This document shows, piece by piece, positions 19,419 to 28,354 of a stretch of DNA of 39,058 nt. The stretch's first letter is position 1. The number at the start of each line of letters is the position of its first letter. Where the stretch lies: positions 1 through 39,058 of the forward strand of contig JAGCFX010000066.1 of the NCBI GenBank assembly GCA_017649925.1, written 5' to 3'. The position numbers and the translations under genes are program-made. Source of the stretch: Paludibacteraceae bacterium. GTDB taxonomy: Bacteria > Bacteroidota > Bacteroidia > Bacteroidales > Paludibacteraceae. Below the pieces are notes generated by a model that ran no database searches, had not been told where the DNA came from, and saw only the letters and a program-made list of their open reading frames with translations.

Positions 19419-22202
19419 TTGAAAAACACTAAACACATATTTTCTATACGAATCTCCCTGCTCCTTGCAGTCTTTCTTCTCGCTGTTCAATCCATTTGGG
19501 CAGTTGCCGGAGGCCCTCCTTCCGGTTATTATAGCGCAATCGAAGGAAAGAAAGACTCGGTGCTCAAATCTACGCTTGGCGCACTTACCTATGCCAATTT
19601 TACTACCATGCTCAGTTATGGTTCCGGGATCGGTAAAACATGGCAAGGGCTTTATTATACGGACCGTAATACGACAGATAATAGCGTGATTGATATGTAC
19701 TCGACTGTCAAGCGCTATTTTGACCCAGAGAATCCAACTGCCAGTGTAACCAATTGTGATATAGAACACATGGTTGCCAACTCATGGTGGGGGGCGAAGG
19801 CTGGTAACGAACATGCATATTGCGATTTGCATCATTTAGTTCCATCCGACTACTCCGCTAATAGAAGTAAAAGTAACCGAGGTCCGGGAATACCGACCGA
19901 CACTACGTTTAATAATGGTGTGTGGGTAAATGGGAAAGACGGTACTCGTAATGACTTGAAAGTGTTCTGTCCCCCCGATGAATACAAAGGAGATTTTGCC
20001 CGTGCATTCTTTTATATAGCCACCACTTACGGAGACACCGCCGTATGGCAAAGTGAAGCCGTCCCTGACTTTATGACAAATTCCAGTTGGCAAGAGTTTT
20101 TGCCATATTTACGTGATTTGTTATTAAGTTGGCACCGTGCAGATCCTGTTTCCGATAAAGAACGTGTGCGCATGAATGAGGTGTATAAAATTCAAGGAAA
20201 CCGCAACCCGTTTATTGACTACCCATGTTTGGCAGAGTATATTTGGGGTGATAAGTCTGGACAGACCGTTACATTAGCAAGTCTTACATGTGCCTATGAC
20301 GACGGTTTTGCAGATGAGGGATGTGCAACGGTTACAACGCCGCTTCTTACATCACCTACTGGTTCTATTAATGTGGGTTCTACATCTGTGAATAATCCAA
20401 TAACGAAGACCATTCATGTTAAAGGAATCAACTTGGCGACCGGAAACCTGACTTTGGCTCTCAGCGGTGCGAATGCAGGATTATTTAGCCTATCTACAGC
20501 ATCGATTATCAAAGCCGATGCCGAAACAGGTTATGATGTAACAATCACTTATACTCCAACGGCCAATGGCTATCATAATGCCACTTTGACAATCAGCGGA
20601 TGTGGAATAACGACGAAGACATTCAGCATTTCCGGTTCCTGTTCTAATATCTATACGGCTACTTGGATGGCAAAGGGATCTCAACATGCGCAGACAACGG
20701 CATCGGACGGACAGACTCCCGCTATTCCGAGTGACCCGACGGATTGCTCTGCTACGCGTGTATTCATGGGGTGGACTGAACAATCCTCAGTCAGCAGCCG
20801 ACCGGCGGATTTATTTGCAGATGAAGCTCCTGCCCTTACATCAAACAAGACATTCTATGCGGTCTTTGCTGATGAGGAAACAGGCGGTGGGAGTGGTGGA
20901 AATGTTACTTACACATTCTCCACTAAATCATGGGCAGCCTCTCCATCTAATTGGATTTCTGGGAAGGATGCATATAGGTACAAAGACAGCCAAGGAGTGT
21001 GGGTAAGTACGTCGTACACAGGCGCGAATGCCACCTGCCCGACATCATATAGCAATATATCTTCGGTAGTGGTGAATTATTGTACCAATGCTACTGCTGG
21101 TGCAGGAAATGTGACTATTACCATTGGCGAGAGTTCGGTGACGCAAGCGGTCACATCCACGGGTGGAACCTCATTGCGCGACTTAACTTTTGATTTCTCA
21201 ACTACTCACCCAACCGGCACACCGAATCTCTCTGTCGAGTGTACTACTAATTCCATTTATATCAATAGTGTTACCATTACTTACGGTCCGCCAACTACAT
21301 ATTCGTACTATTCGTTAGCTTGCAGTACAGCACCTGCTGTGAGTGTGACTGCAACATTTATGAATGGTGTCTCTACTTACGATACCAAAACAGGTAATGC
21401 CGGTCAGGCAGTAAGTGTGACCGACCCAACGCCTTGCGAAGGGCATTCGTTTATCGGTTGGAGTCTTAATACCTACACAAATACCTCTTCCTTGCCTTCG
21501 GTCGATTTCTCGGGAACGCTTCCGTCGACAGATGCTACATATCATGCAGTCTATAGCCATATAGAGGCAGGCGGAGGTAGTGGTGCGCCGGTAGGCACAA
21601 CCTTATGGTCGGAAGATTTTGGTAGTTATGTTCAATACGACCATACAGAGGGAACAGTGACAAATGCAACCGGTAGAACTATTTATAACGGAGGTAGTGT
21701 GACATATAATTATTCAAATGGAAGCACAAATACCAGAATTTATGGAGAAGGTAATACTTGGGCTAATGGCGTACCTCCGGAATTGATGATAGGATATAAT
21801 AATGGTTATTTCAGTATTTCCGGTATTCCGACTGCGGGCGCTGATACCATGACACTAACTTTCAAAACCAACAAATCGTCAACAGCTTATATAAACATCT
21901 CCTCCGGAACAACGGGTATTAATGTGATTGAAACTACATTTGAAGGCATAACAGATGGAGTGGGTGTTGGAACGTGCCATATTAAAAATACCGGAGACGT
22001 CGCCAACTTTGATTTAACTATTAAAAATATTTCTGGTACAACGACCAATATTCGTGTAGATGATTTCTTGTTAGTTATTAAATCAACCAATAATGCATCT
22101 ACCACCTATTACTCCACTTCCACTGATTGTGGGTGTACGGTAACCGTCACAGCGATTAGTGAGGATGACTCGCAAGGAACGGTAACGGTGACAAAACCAT
22201 AA
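19419..22202 (+). CDS. Large secreted endonuclease I family protein with repeat domains (nuclease 1)
   Basis: A signal peptide (residues 1 to about 28) precedes an endonuclease I domain (EndA/Vvn type, beta-beta-alpha-metal fold, about 30-280). It has IEH at 115-117 holding the general-base His117, DLHHLVP at 136-142, and the N-x-x-x-x-SN metal region near 148-153. After it come an Ig-like beta domain (about 305-410), an InlB/Listeria-Bacteroides repeat (ATWMAKGSQ to FYAVFAD), a beta domain of unknown type, a second such repeat, and a jelly-roll-like domain. Glycine-rich GGGSG linkers separate them. The chain ends abruptly in half a repeat (TVTVTAISEDDSQGTVTVTKP). No T9SS sorting domain is present. 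The start codon is TTG, 13 bases beyond the shared promoter block, and gives a good signal peptide. Its role is probably degradation of external DNA. Confidence 0.83.
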   Translation: MKNTKHIFSIRISLLLAVFLLAVQSIWAVAGGPPSGYYSAIEGKKDSVLKSTLGALTYANFTTMLSYGSGIGKTWQGLYYTDRNTTDNSVIDMYSTVKRYFDPENPTASVTNCDIEHMVANSWWGAKAGNEHAYCDLHHLVPSDYSANRSKSNRGPGIPTDTTFNNGVWVNGKDGTRNDLKVFCPPDEYKGDFARAFFYIATTYGDTAVWQSEAVPDFMTNSSWQEFLPYLRDLLLSWHRADPVSDKERVRMNEVYKIQGNRNPFIDYPCLAEYIWGDKSGQTVTLASLTCAYDDGFADEGCATVTTPLLTSPTGSINVGSTSVNNPITKTIHVKGINLATGNLTLALSGANAGLFSLSTASIIKADAETGYDVTITYTPTANGYHNATLTISGCGITTKTFSISGSCSNIYTATWMAKGSQHAQTTASDGQTPAIPSDPTDCSATRVFMGWTEQSSVSSRPADLFADEAPALTSNKTFYAVFADEETGGGSGGNVTYTFSTKSWAASPSNWISGKDAYRYKDSQGVWVSTSYTGANATCPTSYSNISSVVVNYCTNATAGAGNVTITIGESSVTQAVTSTGGTSLRDLTFDFSTTHPTGTPNLSVECTTNSIYINSVTITYGPPTTYSYYSLACSTAPAVSVTATFMNGVSTYDTKTGNAGQAVSVTDPTPCEGHSFIGWSLNTYTNTSSLPSVDFSGTLPSTDATYHAVYSHIEAGGGSGAPVGTTLWSEDFGSYVQYDHTEGTVTNATGRTIYNGGSVTYNYSNGSTNTRIYGEGNTWANGVPPELMIGYNNGYFSISGIPTAGADTMTLTFKTNKSSTAYINISSGTTGINVIETTFEGITDGVGVGTCHIKNTGDVANFDLTIKNISGTTTNIRVDDFLLVIKSTNNASTTYYSTSTDCGCTVTVTAISEDDSQGTVTVTKP

Positions 22203-22379: not shown

Positions 22380-22445
22380 TATCGAGAGCGTATCGAGAGC
22401 ATATCGAGCCATTATCGAGTCATTATCGAACCAATATCGAGAGAT
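22380..22445 (+). repeat. Six 11-bp tandem repeats in the leader of the second nuclease gene
   Basis: TATCGA begins at 22380, 22391, 22402, 22413, 22424 and 22435, an exact 11-bp period. The first two units are identical (TATCGAGAGCG/A) and later ones drift. The array lies between promoter and start codon, in the part of the leader missing from nuclease 1. The 22203-22305 stretch before the promoter is AT-rich with no gene. Confidence 0.9.
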
Positions 22446-22472: not shown

Positions 22473-24920
22473 TTGAAGCACATCAAGCACATAGCATTTC
22501 TTCTTTTAGCATTGTTGTCCTCATCAATTGCTTACGCTGGTATTGATATGCAAGCGCACGTCGCTTCAGATGAAGGTAAAGCGGCTTACACTTCTTATCA
22601 ATCAAAACAATCAGCCTATTATACCGGCAGTTATTCTTATGCAACGATGATGAGCCAAACAGGTAGTACATTGTTCTGTACCATTAATGCCTTAATGGGT
22701 AGTACATGCCTAAATGGAGGATCGGGATATAGTTATAATAATTTAAGGAGCCAATACATCAATGTAGATAGAGACCTTAATAATTCTTCCAATATCATTG
22801 GTTACTATGATGGATCGTCCTTTAGTGGAACATGGGATAGCGGCACTACATGGAATCGTGAGCATACATGGCCTCAATCAAAATTCAAGGGAACGAATAA
22901 TTCTGGAACAAGTATTCCTATTGGTTATGACATGCAGTCAGTGCGCCCGGCAAGCACGTCTGTCAATAGTAGCCGCTCGAACACAGCCTATGGCGAGGGA
23001 TCGAGTTACTATGACCCTAATGAAATATCAATAAATAATTCTAACTATAAATCTTCTAATAATGGAACATATCGTGGAGATTGCGCTCGTGTGATTTTAT
23101 ACGATTATGTAGTATATGGTAAATGGGGGAGTTGTTCCAATAGTTTATATAAGAGTTCATGTACTGTTGATTTGCTTACCCAAATAGGTACAAATAGCAA
23201 CTCGGTATTTGAGTCATTGGCTATATTACTGAAGTGGCATATGCAAGATCCTCCATCGCTTACAGAGATGGTACGAAATGATGGTGGACAAGATTATCAG
23301 GGTAACCGTAACGTCTTTATAGACTATCCGGAGTTGGCAATAAATATGCTCAAGGATCAAACAGGAGTTACTGCATATACCGTGACATACAATATAACAG
23401 AAACGGCCTCTCCTGCGTATGCATATACCACCCCGGCTGGTTTTGTAACATATCTTACGAATTCGTTAGGAGGTCATCCTACTTCTGTTACCGTCACGGG
23501 AGCTACGTACACATATGACTCAACATTAGGACGATTGACTATAACAAACGTAACAGGTGCGGTAACAATCAGTACCACCAGTACCCCGACACTCTCTGTT
23601 TCATCTTCTTCGATTACTATTGGCCCGATTGCAACAAGCAGTTTTACAACTCAAACGTTCACTGTTACTGGTGCTAATCTTACGGGAAGTATCTCGATTA
23701 CTAAGAATTCGGGAAGCAGCAGTTATATTACGGTTAGCCCGACTTCGATTACTTCCGGTTATAACGGAACAAACATAATCACCATTACCTATAACGCACC
23801 CGCGTCAGCAGGAACGCACACGGCTACTTTGACTATCTCAAGTCCGGGAGCGACGTCCGTAACTGTAAATATCACGGCATCCTGTGCTGCTTCCTATACC
23901 GCCACATGGATGGCGAATGGTTCACAGTTTGACACTTCAACGACTGCAAGTGGTGGACGTCCTGATGTACCGGCAACTAATCCGAGTAATTGCTCGTCTT
24001 CTCGTGTCTTCGTTGGCTGGACAGAAAGTAGCAGCGTAAGCAGTGAACCGGCGGACTTATTCACCACCACCGCACCAGAGATTACAACTGACAAGACCTT
24101 CTATGCCGTTTATGCCGATGCTAGCACAAGCGGAGGAGGTAGCCCGACTATAGAGTATGTCAAGGTGACATCAGAACCTGCAGATTGGTCCGGTAATTAT
24201 TTGGTTGTATATGAAGCCGGTGGTCTCGCCTTCAATGGTCTTTCTGCAAAAGGGGAATCGGATGCTGTTACAATATCAAATAATACGATAGCACATACTA
24301 CGGCGTTGGAGAAAGATGAAGTGATAATAGCTTCTATGAGCGGGGGGTATTCGTTACAGATGAATAGTTCTGCAAACAATAATGCAAGTAAATATTTATA
24401 TGGCACAAGCGGTTCGAACGCAATGAATTTTGGTGACGCGGCAAGTGCAAATACGATTTCCATTAGTAGTGGAGATGTTACTATTACATCCAATACTTCC
24501 GTTTTAAGATATAATACAACTGCAAGTAGTGGCTTAATGTTCCGATATTATAAATCAACATCTACAACATTCCCACTCATTCAATTGTTCAAACGTATAG
24601 AAACAGGTGGCTCTATAACTACTTACAGCAATTATAGTACTTATTGCTCTTCCTCCTATACAATTACAGTCAATGCAGGAGCAGGAGGAACGGCATCAGG
24701 TGGAGGCACGTATGCAAATGGAAGTTCGCAAATAATTAGCGCAACGCCAAGCACATGTTATCAGTTCTTGCAGTGGAACGATGGCAATACCGATAACCCA
24801 CGAACGATAACCGTTAGTGGAGATGCTACCTACACCGCTACTTTTGAGCAGATTACTTATAGGGTCACTGCCACCAGTGATGATAGTAGCAAAGGAACGG
24901 TGAATGTTACAAAACCATAA
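22473..24920 (+). CDS. Secreted endonuclease I family protein with repeat domains (nuclease 2)
   Basis: Paralogue of nuclease 1. A signal peptide (ending SSIAYA) is followed by the endonuclease I domain, with WNREHTWPQS (general-base His131) and a RSN metal region at 168-170. The usual DLHH is DMQS here (153-156), a variant that keeps the Asp. Then follow an Ig-like domain (about 375-475), one InlB-type repeat (ATWMANGSQF to FYAVYAD), and a domain of about 140 residues starting WSGNYLVVYE that I cannot name. A complete repeat comes next (YTITVNAGAGG to YTATFEQ) and a terminal half repeat (YRVTATSDDSSKGTVNVTKP). There is no T9SS domain. The start is TTG, like its paralogue. The gene is visibly more AT-rich than its neighbours. 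The repeat protein follows after 55 bases. Confidence 0.82.
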   Translation: MKHIKHIAFLLLALLSSSIAYAGIDMQAHVASDEGKAAYTSYQSKQSAYYTGSYSYATMMSQTGSTLFCTINALMGSTCLNGGSGYSYNNLRSQYINVDRDLNNSSNIIGYYDGSSFSGTWDSGTTWNREHTWPQSKFKGTNNSGTSIPIGYDMQSVRPASTSVNSSRSNTAYGEGSSYYDPNEISINNSNYKSSNNGTYRGDCARVILYDYVVYGKWGSCSNSLYKSSCTVDLLTQIGTNSNSVFESLAILLKWHMQDPPSLTEMVRNDGGQDYQGNRNVFIDYPELAINMLKDQTGVTAYTVTYNITETASPAYAYTTPAGFVTYLTNSLGGHPTSVTVTGATYTYDSTLGRLTITNVTGAVTISTTSTPTLSVSSSSITIGPIATSSFTTQTFTVTGANLTGSISITKNSGSSSYITVSPTSITSGYNGTNIITITYNAPASAGTHTATLTISSPGATSVTVNITASCAASYTATWMANGSQFDTSTTASGGRPDVPATNPSNCSSSRVFVGWTESSSVSSEPADLFTTTAPEITTDKTFYAVYADASTSGGGSPTIEYVKVTSEPADWSGNYLVVYEAGGLAFNGLSAKGESDAVTISNNTIAHTTALEKDEVIIASMSGGYSLQMNSSANNNASKYLYGTSGSNAMNFGDAASANTISISSGDVTITSNTSVLRYNTTASSGLMFRYYKSTSTTFPLIQLFKRIETGGSITTYSNYSTYCSSSYTITVNAGAGGTASGGGTYANGSSQIISATPSTCYQFLQWNDGNTDNPRTITVSGDATYTATFEQITYRVTATSDDSSKGTVNVTKP

Positions 24921-24975
24921 TTTGCAGTAAAGCAAAAAAACAAAGTATATTATAAACTAAAAACTCAACACAGTT

Positions 24976-26673
24976 ATGAGAAAGTTATTCTCCTTGCTAT
25001 TAGCCTTAACGGCTACAGCAACATTGGCTTTCGCAGCTTCGCAATCATCTTACCAGGATGTAAATTGCGGCTCGTCTGCCACACTGACCGCTACTCCTAA
25101 AACGGGTTATCACTTCGTGGAGTGGCAAAAAGACGGAGTGCAAGTCAGCACTTCCAACCCTTATCAAGTAACAGATGTCAACGCTGTCGCATCCTACAAA
25201 GCCATCTTTGCGCTTGACACCTACATCGTAACTTACAACAAAGGAACTGCCGCTAGCGCAAATGGCTCTGATCAAACGGACACTAAGACGTACGGTGTGA
25301 CGCTTAACCTCCGTTCTTCCGCTCTCTTTACCCGTACGGGTTACACGCAAACAGCATGGAGCGAAAGTCCGGACGGATCTACCAATGACCATGCTTTTGG
25401 TTGGGGATACACAGCCAATGCTGCGGCTACGTTCTATCCGTATTGGACGGCTAACACCTATACCATTACTTACAACAAAGGTACGGCAGTTGGCGCTACA
25501 GGTGGCAATCAAACGGATACCAAGACCCATGATGTAGCACTTACATTGAAAGGTGCCATTTTTACCCGTGACGGTTATGACCAGGACGGTTGGAGTACGA
25601 ATGAAGCAGGTTCAACTAAAGATTATAATTTAAACGCAAGTTATACAACCGAAGGCAACGCAACGCTCTATCCGCACTGGGTTCTTAAGACTTATACCAT
25701 TTCATATAACCCGGGTGCTAATGGTTCCGGTAGTGTCGCTTCAACGAGCAAGACGCATGGTACAAATGCTACTTTGTCAAGTAGTACCTTTACTCGTGCC
25801 GGATATACACAAGACGGTTGGAGCACATCTGATGGCGGCGCATTGGCTTATGCATTAGGCGCAACCAACTATGCAACCGAAGGCAATGCAACGCTCTATC
25901 CGCACTGGTCAATCAATCATTATACAATCACATACCACGCAGGTGCAAATGGCACAGGTACTGTAGCTTCAACGGATAAGACACATGGAGTAAACACCAA
26001 TGTGTCCAGCAGCACCTTCACTCGTGAATGCTACACACAGACTGGTTGGAGTTATTCCGATGGTGGAGCAGAAGCTTTCGGATTAGGTGCAGCATATACA
26101 GTTGACGCAGACGCAGACCTCTATCCTGTATGGGTACAAGATACTTACACGGTTACATTCAATAACCATAATGGTACTCAGCTCAAGTCGGGCAGTGTAG
26201 CGTGTGGCGCTAATCCTACACCTCCGGCTTCTGATCCTGTTCATGACGCTGTATCAGGTCATTCTTATACCTTCACAGGTTGGAATGATGGCACGACCAC
26301 TTATGCAAAGGGCGCTACACTTCCTGCTGTTAGCGGTAATGTAACATACACAGCTGTATTCTCGGATGCAACATTGTCCTATACACTCAGCGTTGCCGTA
26401 GCAAGCGGCCAATCAAGTATGGGTAGTGTGAAAGTGGATGCAGGTCCTGCTACAAGTGTAACAGATCAATACGGCGAAACGCACACTATTACTGCTACTG
26501 CCAATGCATGCTATGAATTCGTTCAATGGAACGATGGTAATACCAATGCAACGCGTAGTATTGAGATTACCGGCGATATTACTTACACGGCAACTTTCCA
26601 GATTATCCAGTACAGGATTACTGCAGTAAGTGATGATGACAGTCAAGGTACTGTAACAGTAACACTGCCCTAA
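24976..26673 (+). CDS. Secreted protein made only of beta repeats, with half-repeats at both ends
   Basis: After a signal peptide (ending TLAFA) the protein is a string of InlB/Listeria-Bacteroides-type repeats. It opens with the second half of one (VNCGSSATLTATPKTGYHF... to SYKAIFA). Six complete units follow, starting near YIVTYNKG, YTITYNKG, YTISYNPG, YTITYHAG, YTVTFNNH and YTLSVAVA. It ends in the first half of another (YRITAVSDDDSQGTVTVTLP). There is no enzyme domain and no sorting signal. The units at 25647-25680 and 25875-25908 share 34 bp with one mismatch, a sign of recent unit duplication. It starts with ATG and is 21 bases from the next gene. The role is unknown, and a scaffold or linker role is inferred. 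Confidence 0.8.
   Translation: MRKLFSLLLALTATATLAFAASQSSYQDVNCGSSATLTATPKTGYHFVEWQKDGVQVSTSNPYQVTDVNAVASYKAIFALDTYIVTYNKGTAASANGSDQTDTKTYGVTLNLRSSALFTRTGYTQTAWSESPDGSTNDHAFGWGYTANAAATFYPYWTANTYTITYNKGTAVGATGGNQTDTKTHDVALTLKGAIFTRDGYDQDGWSTNEAGSTKDYNLNASYTTEGNATLYPHWVLKTYTISYNPGANGSGSVASTSKTHGTNATLSSSTFTRAGYTQDGWSTSDGGALAYALGATNYATEGNATLYPHWSINHYTITYHAGANGTGTVASTDKTHGVNTNVSSSTFTRECYTQTGWSYSDGGAEAFGLGAAYTVDADADLYPVWVQDTYTVTFNNHNGTQLKSGSVACGANPTPPASDPVHDAVSGHSYTFTGWNDGTTTYAKGATLPAVSGNVTYTAVFSDATLSYTLSVAVASGQSSMGSVKVDAGPATSVTDQYGETHTITATANACYEFVQWNDGNTNATRSIEITGDITYTATFQIIQYRITAVSDDDSQGTVTVTLP
25647..25680 (+). repeat. 34-bp intragenic direct repeat (partner at 25875-25908)
   Basis: Encodes TEGNATLYPHW in two neighbouring repeat units. 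The two copies differ at one base only, whereas the other units of the protein have diverged further. Confidence 0.8.
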
Positions 26674-26694
26674 TCAACAAACGAACCAAACGAA

Positions 26695-27489
26695 ATGAAA
26701 CGGTTTATTCTCTATATATTCCTTAGTACATTCTGCCTCGGGGTAATGGCGCAAGCCAACCCCGTAGGCGGAGTGACTGTGGATTGCGGCACTTGGCTTA
26801 CGCTGAGCGCTATTCCGCATGAGGATTACCATTTCGTGGAATGGAACGACGGGGCGAAAGATTCAATTCGACAAGTAGAGGTAACGGCTGATGCGTTGTA
26901 CATCGCGTATTTTGCCGAGAATTGTGTTGAGTTGCCAAACTTGCCGGTTGTGACTCTGTATGATTGGCTTATCATGCTTAATATCAATGAGATTCATGAT
27001 CGTGGATATTATTTCAACCCCAATGATGTAACGTGGTGTCGCGTAGTGGGAGAACCCGATAAAGCGGGAGAAGACGGCGACGACGAGCAAGTATGCAAAG
27101 GCTATTACCTGACGCTTGACAAGAATCTGTGGGGCACGGGTGATTACTATGCTCAAATAGATATTCTGCTTGAGTCACCGGTTACGCTCTGTTCGGATGT
27201 GCTTCGGTCGGTATTGGTCCATTTCGCCGGCCCGAATCCTAATCGTCAGCTCGCTTTGCTGCCTAACGGCGCAAGGATGGGCGGCCAACTCAAATTGGTG
27301 GGATTGGATCCGAACGAAGAGACGACATTGCAAGTATTCTCTTCCGCCGGTCAATTGGTTAATACGTTCACCACTTCAGGCGAGCCGACATTTATGTTCC
27401 CGGCGGGAGTCGTCAGCGGATGCTATCATGTGCGCGTGACTTCGCCGAGCGTTGATGCAGTCCTCAAATATATCGTATATGCGAAGTAA
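26695..27489 (+). CDS. T9SS-sorted protein with an N-terminal half-repeat
   Basis: The signal peptide (MKRFILYIFLSTFCLGVMAQ) is followed directly by the second half of a beta repeat (GGVTVDCGTWLTLSAIP, HFVEWNDG, LYIAYFAE, about 25-75). A middle domain comes next (VTLYDWLIMLN to YYAQIDILLE, about 85-160). The end (about 180-264) is a type A T9SS C-terminal sorting domain: it opens PNPNRQL, has TLQVFSSAGQLV in the middle and finishes CYHVRVTS...LKYIVYAK. It is the only protein of the operon with such a domain. It should cross the outer membrane by T9SS and be attached or released at the surface. It overlaps the barrel gene by 11 bases. Confidence 0.83.
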   Translation: MKRFILYIFLSTFCLGVMAQANPVGGVTVDCGTWLTLSAIPHEDYHFVEWNDGAKDSIRQVEVTADALYIAYFAENCVELPNLPVVTLYDWLIMLNINEIHDRGYYFNPNDVTWCRVVGEPDKAGEDGDDEQVCKGYYLTLDKNLWGTGDYYAQIDILLESPVTLCSDVLRSVLVHFAGPNPNRQLALLPNGARMGGQLKLVGLDPNEETTLQVFSSAGQLVNTFTTSGEPTFMFPAGVVSGCYHVRVTSPSVDAVLKYIVYAK

Positions 27490-28354
27490 ATGGCGTACCT
27501 ATATCATTTGTTCGTTACTAGCGTTCAGTAGCAGCCTTATCGCTCAGCCGCATTATATTAGTGTGGGCGTGCGAGGCGGTGCAGGTACATTCCGTGCGAC
27601 CGGAGCGCTGAAGAATCAATGGGAGCCGAATGTCTGGGTGGATGCGAACTATTCGTATCTTTGGCCTGTTCAAGAGACACAATTGGGTATTACAACGGGT
27701 CTCAATTTCGGCTACGTAGGCGGTGGATATACGACATCTTATACGGATCAATATACCAACTTTGATTACTATGGTAATGCGATAGACTATACTAATACCG
27801 TTGGTTCCATCGAAGAGCGTACGCATGGCTTTGCCATGGAGATTCCGGCATTGTTTGCATTGCACTACAAAGGTCTGATCATGCATGCGGGAATCAAGTT
27901 GCAAGTGCCGTGCTGGTACAAATATACGCAAACGATAAGTGACATCAATATTCACGCCGACTACCCAGCATTTGGAGTGGCGCTGGATAATGAACTTATT
28001 ACCGGTAAGTTACCGCAAGAACAATATGTCACGGAAGCAGAGTGGCGTGACGTGGGCGATGTCAGTTTGTTGTTTAGCGTAGATTTAGGCTATGAGTGGC
28101 AACTGACAGAACGGGACTGGCTGGGTTTGCAAGCTTGGTTTGACGGCGCGCCATACAGCCATCCGGCGGGCAAACCCACCGAGCGGATGATTGATGTGGC
28201 GCCGATTAGCGACCCTACTTATCCGCCTGCACAAGTGACCGTTAATACCGCCATTAGTACTACCGCTACGCGGCTCAATTATTTGGCGTGTGGCATCAAG
28301 TTGAGTTATCGCTTTGATGTCTTAGGGCATATGCAACAAAGGCAACCCCAATAA
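27479..28354 (+). CDS. Predicted outer-membrane beta-barrel protein
   Basis: The ATG at 27479, overlapping the previous gene by 11 bases, gives a signal peptide (YIICSLLAFSSSLIAQ). The mature part has alternating amphipathic strands rich in Tyr, Trp and Gly (YISVGVRGGAG, WVDANYSYLW, TGLNFGYVGGGY, LFSVDLGYEWQL, YLACGIKLSYRFD), typical of a small barrel. The length is 291 residues, with no plug or peptidase domain. I do not recognise the family. The size is near that of PorP/SprF-type partners of T9SS cargo, but I see no clear PorP/SprF signature. It is the last gene of the nuclease 2 operon and a plausible surface anchor for it. Confidence 0.7.
   Translation: MRSKWRTYIICSLLAFSSSLIAQPHYISVGVRGGAGTFRATGALKNQWEPNVWVDANYSYLWPVQETQLGITTGLNFGYVGGGYTTSYTDQYTNFDYYGNAIDYTNTVGSIEERTHGFAMEIPALFALHYKGLIMHAGIKLQVPCWYKYTQTISDINIHADYPAFGVALDNELITGKLPQEQYVTEAEWRDVGDVSLLFSVDLGYEWQLTERDWLGLQAWFDGAPYSHPAGKPTERMIDVAPISDPTYPPAQVTVNTAISTTATRLNYLACGIKLSYRFDVLGHMQQRQPQ

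What the first reader, a model, noticed from the sequence alone, without database searches (positions are those of the whole stretch)
22473..27489. Split beta-repeats across gene junctions: each protein ends where the next begins
Nuclease 2 ends in the first half of an InlB-type repeat (YRVTATSDDSSKGTVNVTKP). The repeat protein begins, after its signal peptide, with the second half (VNCGSSATLTATPKTGYHF...). The repeat protein ends in the same first half (YRITAVSDDDSQGTVTVTLP), and the T9SS-sorted protein begins with the same second half (VTVDCGTWLTLSAIP...HFVEWNDG). Both junctions break the repeat at the same point, and joining the halves restores a unit like the intact ones inside nuclease 2 and the repeat protein. 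Three separate secreted proteins could therefore assemble by strand complementation, in the manner of donor-strand exchange. Only the last has a T9SS sorting domain, so it could carry or anchor the others. I know of no described system of this kind. The halves are seen in the sequence; docking is inference.
Basis: partly seen in the sequence, partly recalled or inferred. Interest (0 to 1): 0.88.

Follow-up and report, generated by a model that had tools for sequence, protein, structure and literature searches.

The report
Secreted proteins sharing split repeat domains
Neighbouring secreted proteins in uncultured gut bacteria each carry part of one beta-repeat at the facing ends of their genes, and the parts, with matching cysteines, suggest that the proteins snap together behind one shared export signal; this is a prediction without experiment.

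Summary
In 41 gene triplets from 39 loci of one genus (relatives are filed as Paludibacteraceae or Bacteroidales), spacer B begins with the second part of an InlB-type repeat and ends with the first part, and adaptor C begins with the second part and carries a sorting end. In the 40 with cargo A in view (Endonuclease I, BspA-LRR, others), A ends in the first part.

New evidence: (1) five fused relatives have a complete repeat where C is cut; (2) every split head (82/82) has a cysteine that 18/260 intact repeats have, and B has a cysteine within 46 residues before its tail in 41/41; (3) in continuous arrays these two positions co-occur (17/18 against 37/241), so an inter-unit contact, perhaps a disulfide, seems to straddle each split. 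AlphaFold gives the B tail two confident strands when C follows; partners could not be read.

Best reading: cargo, spacer and adaptor assemble by repeat complementation and leave through C's T9SS-like domain. Against: no DsbA or VKOR found, small profile gain on joining, no preference of A-B over B-B, no experiment.

The parts
19419..22202 (+). A1: Endonuclease I cargo (927 aa, TTG start in the ORF list) ending in a first-part repeat; no own T9SS sorting domain detected
   Evidence: PF04231 120.9 bits; no TIGR04183 hit; tail read from sequence
22128..22199 (+). A1 tail: Cys-Gly-Cys directly before strand 1, then the first part of an InlB-type repeat up to the stop
   Evidence: sequence
22473..24920 (+). 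A2: Endonuclease I cargo (815 aa, TTG start in the ORF list) with one intact InlB unit and then the tail
   Evidence: PF04231 87 bits, PF18998 45.4 bits at residues 729-794
24756..24758 (+). A2 candidate donor cysteine (Cys762, CYQFLQW) in the last intact unit before the tail
24852..24917 (+). A2 tail: first part of a repeat (ITYRVTATSDDSSKGTVNVTKP)
24976..26673 (+). B: spacer (565 aa), signal-peptide-like start (by eye), second-part head, several List_Bact/InlB units, first-part tail
   Evidence: PF09479 and PF18998
25051..25212 (+). B head: second part of a repeat with acceptor Cys31 (25066-25068)
   Evidence: PF18998 from profile position 15; Cys at match 21
26509..26511 (+). B candidate donor cysteine (Cys512, CYEFVQW) in the last intact unit before the tail
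26605..26670 (+). B tail: first part of a repeat (IQYRITAVSDDDSQGTVTVTLP); strands 75-82 and 88-93 of the B-C model
26695..27489 (+). C: adaptor (264 aa), signal-peptide-like start (by eye), second-part head, middle domain, T9SS type A-like sorting domain
   Evidence: TIGR04183 below cut-off; profile match to solved sorting domains
26764..26919 (+). C head: second part of a repeat with acceptor Cys31 (26785-26787)
   Evidence: PF18998 from profile position 18
27280..27477 (+). T9SS type A-like sorting domain of C
   Evidence: TIGR04183 21.7 bits, cut-off 23; chains of 5hfs, 8glk, 7pq4
27452..28354 (+). D: conserved neighbour gene, possible outer-membrane beta-barrel (ATG at 27479 is a likelier start); candidate anchor or carrier
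   Evidence: relative directly downstream of C in 25 of 41 triplets and upstream of A in 3; no Pfam match for window D; NF049866 below cut-off in two of three other D proteins

Best explanation
A split-repeat surface assembly. Each protein enters the periplasm by its own signal peptide. The C-terminal tail of cargo A (strands 1 and 2 of an InlB-type repeat) completes the N-terminal part-repeat of spacer B, and the tail of B completes that of adaptor C, restoring the tandem-repeat geometry of a continuous protein. A cysteine near the tail and the cysteine at the start of the head probably staple the joint. In the window only C has a T9SS-like sorting domain, so the complex would leave through the T9SS on C, possibly held at the surface with help of D. 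Shown: the anatomy, its conservation, fused relatives, cysteine covariation, SprA in the genome. Inferred: docking, the disulfide, joint export, anchoring.
For: B and C features in 41 of 41 triplets, A tail in 38 of 40 by motif plus two by eye; A cargo differs (Endonuclease I, BspA LRR, others) while the tail stays. Fused relatives L086, L120, L129, L130, L131 carry a complete unit before the C middle domain, with Tyr, by eye, at the head-Cys position. Head Cys 82/82 against 18/260 unique intact units. B donor Cys in 41/41 (40 within 45 residues before the tail, L077 at 46) while the B interior has 18 Cys in 4059 residues; 31/41 mature B have exactly two Cys. In continuous arrays units with the head Cys have a Cys just upstream in 17/18, others 37/241. 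AlphaFold of window B end plus C: tail strands at pLDDT about 90; in an A-tail plus B model the A tail is stranded and the B tail is not. A and B tails of one locus resemble each other (0.349 against 0.220 in 24 non-redundant triplets, 0/5000 permutations). SprA 2666 bits in the genome. C of L098 and L099 (160 and 164 aa) read as little more than head plus sorting domain.
Against: No VKOR and no DSBA family match in the host genome, 96% complete, so a disulfide lacks its usual enzymes. Strand partners could not be read; pTM 0.43 and 0.41; in the A-B model the A tail has pLDDT only 43-62 and the five models range from 62.4 down to 51.0. Profile gain from adding the tail is small: median 0.55 bits (A-B, n=40) and 1.8 (B-C, n=41), against -0.5 and -0.8 for foreign and -0.2 and 0.0 for shuffled tails. 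No preference of A-B over B-B or A-C by profile. A cysteine parity is uninformative, 20 odd and 18 even, and the A donor cysteine is near background (39/40, about 0.69 expected). Of the 18 intact Cys units 12 come from two proteins. Window C sorting domain is below cut-off. Within-locus likeness of tails could also be gene conversion.
Confidence: 0.72

Rival explanations
1. B polymerises: its own tail fits the head of the next copy, so B forms a fibre with A at the tip and C at the base.
For: B-B joins score like A-B and B-C joins (medians 43.7, 44.8, 44.3 bits; n 38, 37, 41, three loci dropped where the head cut failed); A and B tails are alike within a locus; short B of about 170 aa is, by eye, just head, one unit, tail.
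Against: Nothing shows copy number; long B proteins (window 565 aa) would be odd pilins; the same data fit a 1:1:1 complex.
Confidence: 0.3
2. The parts are caps: tail and head each fold alone to end a repeat array and never meet.
For: Repeat arrays in other families can end in partial capping units (recalled); profile gain on joining is small.
Against: The cut is kept in 41 of 41 B-C and 40 of 40 A-B junctions in view; the head Cys is nearly specific to split heads and its partner position lies before the neighbour's tail; five fused relatives have the whole unit; the B tail forms no strand in the model where C is absent.
Confidence: 0.12
3. The tail is a short sorting or processing signal of its own, independent of the head of the next protein.
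For: Window A and B lack the usual sorting domain and share a C-terminal motif.
Against: T9SS sorting domains are seven-stranded sandwiches (PMC10994853, passage), the model being 72 positions long; the tail is about 20 residues and does not explain the heads or the cysteines.
Confidence: 0.08
4. In B the tail closes on its own head inside one molecule, a circular permutation without part in assembly.
For: B has both parts and usually two cysteines.
Against: A has only a tail and C only a head; in window B several units lie between; in the A-tail plus B model the B tail has no strand.
Confidence: 0.07
5. Gene fission with no function: a frameshift or assembly error broke one long protein.
For: Fused relatives exist; a real frame break inside a repeat is seen in L134, outside the family.
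Against: Each part has its own start and signal-peptide-like leader (by eye), the layout is kept across 24 triplets under 70% identity in C, and the head cysteine is fixed.
Confidence: 0.03

Closest known systems
Type V pili of Bacteroidales (FimA/Mfa1)
   Same: Surface assembly in the same order, with donor-strand complementation proposed between subunits (PMC4789730, passages read).
   Different: There lipoprotein precursors lose an N-terminal strand to a protease (same passages). Here two strands lie at the C-terminus, the fold is an InlB-type repeat, no fimbrillin family was hit and a T9SS-like sorting domain is on one partner. A processing site was not looked for.
Chaperone-usher pili
   Same: Incomplete domain completed by a neighbour's strand (recalled; also compared in PMC4789730).
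   Different: Donor part is C-terminal and the fold differs; chaperone and usher families were not searched for.
T9SS substrates with their own sorting domain, including an Endonuclease I
   Same: Same kind of cargo and a sorting domain of the same family on C (one search lists 8glk chain D, named Endonuclease I).
   Different: Here cargo and sorting domain are separate proteins joined, as inferred, by a split repeat.
Type B T9SS substrates with a carrier other than PorV (SprB type)
   Same: Substrate held at the surface by a carrier protein (PMC10994853, passages); D could play that part.
   Different: C resembles the type A sorting model and window D has no Pfam match.
Cohesin-dockerin and SpyTag-like split domains (recalled)
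   Same: Many cargo types bear one docking end for one partner.
   Different: Here a tandem repeat is split between genes of one cluster; sequence relation to those systems was not tested.

Membership tests
PF18998 Divergent InlB B-repeat (Flg_new_2) | Profile match over the gathering score | tested here: met
   B 71.6 bits, nuclease 2 45.4; window C 21.1, just below 23.6, its head fragment alone 24.9
PF18998 Divergent InlB B-repeat (Flg_new_2) | Complete unit in one chain at the joints | tested here: not met
   Heads begin at profile position 15-19; the first strands lie on the preceding protein
T9SS type A substrate (C protein) | TIGR04183 over cut-off | tested here: inconclusive
   Window C 19.4-21.7 bits, cut-off 23; of six other C scanned, L078 27.6 is above, L064 and L070 below, three short ones without match
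T9SS type A substrate (C protein) | Similarity to solved sorting domains | tested here: met
   C profile 206-263 to 5hfs, 8glk, 7pq4, E 0.006-0.008, and to 9whd, E 0.0004
T9SS type A substrate (C protein) | T9SS translocon gene in the genome | tested here: met
   SprA TIGR04189 2666 bits, 0 of 14 control genomes ring
T9SS type A substrate (A and B) | Own C-terminal sorting domain | tested here: not met
   No TIGR04183 hit in nuclease 1, nuclease 2 or B of the window
Type V pili | Fimbrillin/Mfa family domain | tested here: not met
   Pfam scans of four window proteins and ten more, one of them window D
Type V pili | Strand exchange between subunits | not testable with these tools
   needs protein work; model coordinates not available
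Chaperone-usher pili | Chaperone and usher genes in the operon | not tested
   families not searched

The most novel reading that the evidence does not exclude
A modular display system in which T9SS export is given in trans: exchangeable cargoes carry a docking tail, spacer B can chain head to tail into a fibre, adaptor C is a detachable sorting signal (in the 160-aa form little more than head plus sorting domain), and each joint is a tandem repeat split between two proteins and stapled by a cysteine pair taken over from continuous arrays.
Probability: 0.4. Interest if true: 0.92.

Novelty: new variant of a known kind. Interest (0 to 1): 0.8.

Why it matters
If true, Bacteroidota can export cargo without its own T9SS signal by clipping it to a separate adaptor, and a repeat unit cut between genes serves as a joint. 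That would be a new way to build surface complexes, would change how T9SS secretomes are predicted (proteins without a sorting domain could be surface exposed), and offers a natural two-strand docking pair. It is directly testable with purified domains.

Tried and rejected
Fission without function, caps, intramolecular closure and a stand-alone tag were weighed and put lower (see rivals). A frameshift or read-through origin was rejected: B and C have their own starts and leaders (by eye), and gaps vary in length and frame. Pair specificity by profile was sought and not found (three loci dropped where the head cut failed). The gain suggested is confounded by different head cuts; the controlled figure is. 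In one search the head comparison held two wrongly cut heads (L089 B, L092 C), so only its tail result is used. Cysteine parity of A gave nothing (38 A proteins with a start in view). Enzymes for disulfides: no match. Foldseek hits of the B-C model were long Ig-like strings with TM about 0.2, uninformative. Alignments A5 and A6 were misplaced and not folded. Sixteen genome-contig hits (L134-L149) looked unlike the rest; I read 12 of them and two order hits of the family (L158, L164): repeats or sorting ends inside longer frames, no triplet.

In print: ten library searches showed no such system; the library holds open-licence PMC papers only, so this is weak. PMC10994853: passages read. PMC4789730: passages, part of the abstract among them. 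All others: search listing only.
Full report
What is there. In the window, two Endonuclease I genes (nuclease 1, 19419-22202; nuclease 2, 22473-24920), a repeat protein B (24976-26673), a small protein C (26695-27489) and a neighbour D (27452-28354) stand in a row on the + strand. The quoted part-repeats are exact. The DNA for GTVxVTxP-stop occurs exactly three times in the host genome, all here, and four times in 101 genomes, the fourth in the G041 relative of this locus.

It is a conserved layout. C was searched in 151 genomes of the genus; 143 have some match, many of them to parts of longer proteins (the match list is cut). I fetched 40 loci picked from that list, mainly those with a stand-alone C, not every one. 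Two are fusions; the other 38 plus the window give 41 triplets in 39 loci, 40 with A in view. In 41 of 41 the gene before C has a head at its start and a tail at its end. The tail motif is within 14 residues of the stop in 38/40 A and 41/41 B proteins, against 6/238 other ORFs, two of which look like further A genes. Among the 40 triplets with A, 24 remain when C must be under 70% identical. Cargo A differs: Endonuclease I, BspA leucine-rich repeats, InlB units only, or no Pfam match. B ranges from 168 to 565 aa. C of L098 and L099 is 160 and 164 aa and reads as leader, head and sorting end. A relative of D lies directly downstream of C in 25 of 41 and directly upstream of A in 3; in the other 13 the search saw none next to the triplet, though by eye a D-like ORF follows in L062, L093-L095.

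Who has it. In genome contigs 48 loci were found; titles of the close ones name Bacteroidales and Paludibacteraceae MAGs, many from rumen and gut samples; the nearest C is 79% identical (isolate pig5.17). In 295 genomes drawn from the order, no listed match outside the genus covers head plus sorting end in a short frame; the list is cut, and only two genomes of other genera of the family are among those listed with a match. Outside hits that I read were repeats in longer frames.

Rosetta-stone evidence. One search lists 20 frames in which the C middle region lies in a longer protein (19 places, L085 and L119 being one). In at least five (L086, L120, L129, L130, L131) a complete InlB-type unit stands before it, in L129 and L131 with a short linker; in L086 D follows. 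The others have List_Bact units or other sequence there, for example L085 and L176, so fusion did not always keep this unit.

The cysteines. At the start of the head (profile position 21) 41/41 B and 41/41 C heads have Cys; 18 of 260 unique intact units do, and the five fused units have Tyr by eye. Before the tail, in the last intact unit (CxxF..W), B has Cys in 41/41 (40 within 45 residues, L077 at 46), while the B interior holds 18 Cys in 4059 residues; 31/41 mature B have exactly two Cys. In continuous arrays, units with the position-21 Cys have a Cys in the stretch before them in 17/18, others in 37/241 (Fisher 4e-12; 12 of the 18 come from two proteins, so the units are not independent). 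So a contact between the preceding unit and the start of the next half is inferred in continuous proteins, and its two ends sit on two different proteins at both split joints. For A the signal is weaker: 39/40, but background alone gives about 0.69, and parity says nothing. Neither VKOR nor DSBA was found in the genome, so how a disulfide would form is open; another contact is possible.

Structure. Window B end plus C as one chain (stop read as Gly, 23 sequences): pLDDT 78.4, pTM 0.43; tail strands 75-82 and 88-93 at about 90, most of the linker about 50, head strands from 130 to 178 mostly about 90. L108 A tail plus B (12 sequences): best model pLDDT 62.4, the others 56.0 to 51.0; A tail stranded at 43-62, B's own tail without strand. 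This fits tail with the next head rather than B on itself, but coordinates could not be read, and linking favours neighbours.

Sequence tests that were weak. Adding the true tail raises the repeat score by a median 0.55 bits (A-B, n=40) and 1.8 (B-C, n=41); foreign tails give -0.5 and -0.8 (n=410 each), shuffled ones -0.2 (n=400) and 0.0 (n=410). Joins A-B, B-C, B-B and A-C score alike. A and B tails of one locus are more alike than across loci, which fits two like sockets but also gene conversion.

Export. A and B of the window have no sorting-domain hit; C has one of type A by similarity (TIGR04183 21.7 bits, cut-off 23; solved sorting domains). The genome has SprA and 11 sorting-domain stretches over cut-off; at the loose E used, 13 of 14 control genomes ring but only one over cut-off. 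Type A substrates leave with PorV and type B with another carrier (PMC10994853, passages). Export of A and B on C is therefore inference; so is D as anchor.

Verdict. Observation confirmed and widened; interpretation partly supported: docking likely (about 0.8), joint export through C plausible (about 0.65), fibre formation open (0.3). By principle it works like donor-strand complementation; it is not shown to belong to any pilus family considered.

Noticed in passing
window 22380-22441: Six TATCGA copies at exact 11-base spacing just upstream of nuclease 2; the paired pattern (up to 2 mismatches) is found six times in the window, five of them here, against 0.2 in shuffles. Looks like a helically phased regulator site.
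   Followed up: partly
window 19419-22202 and 22473-24920: Two tandem Endonuclease I genes, both read from TTG starts, both with docking tails; L062 (G041) has a similar pair by eye.
   Followed up: partly
L078 and L079: Two successive A-B-C triplets in one locus with different tail types (GSVTG against GQVGGE in L078); in L078 D follows only the second.
   Followed up: partly
L179 and L128: Long frames (2921 and 2624 aa) with repeated Cys pairs between neighbouring InlB-type units, the continuous counterpart of the split joint.
   Followed up: yes
L067 A protein: Very cysteine-rich BspA-like cargo (53 Cys in the trimmed protein), in the genus of the window genome, which shows no DsbA or VKOR match.
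   Followed up: no
L088, L090, L091, L092, L094, L095: A second, longer D-like gene (489-564 aa) lies before A.
   Followed up: no
L134, about 6210: A repeat protein outside the family broken by a frame change inside a repeat, without a new leader; different from the split seen here.
   Followed up: no
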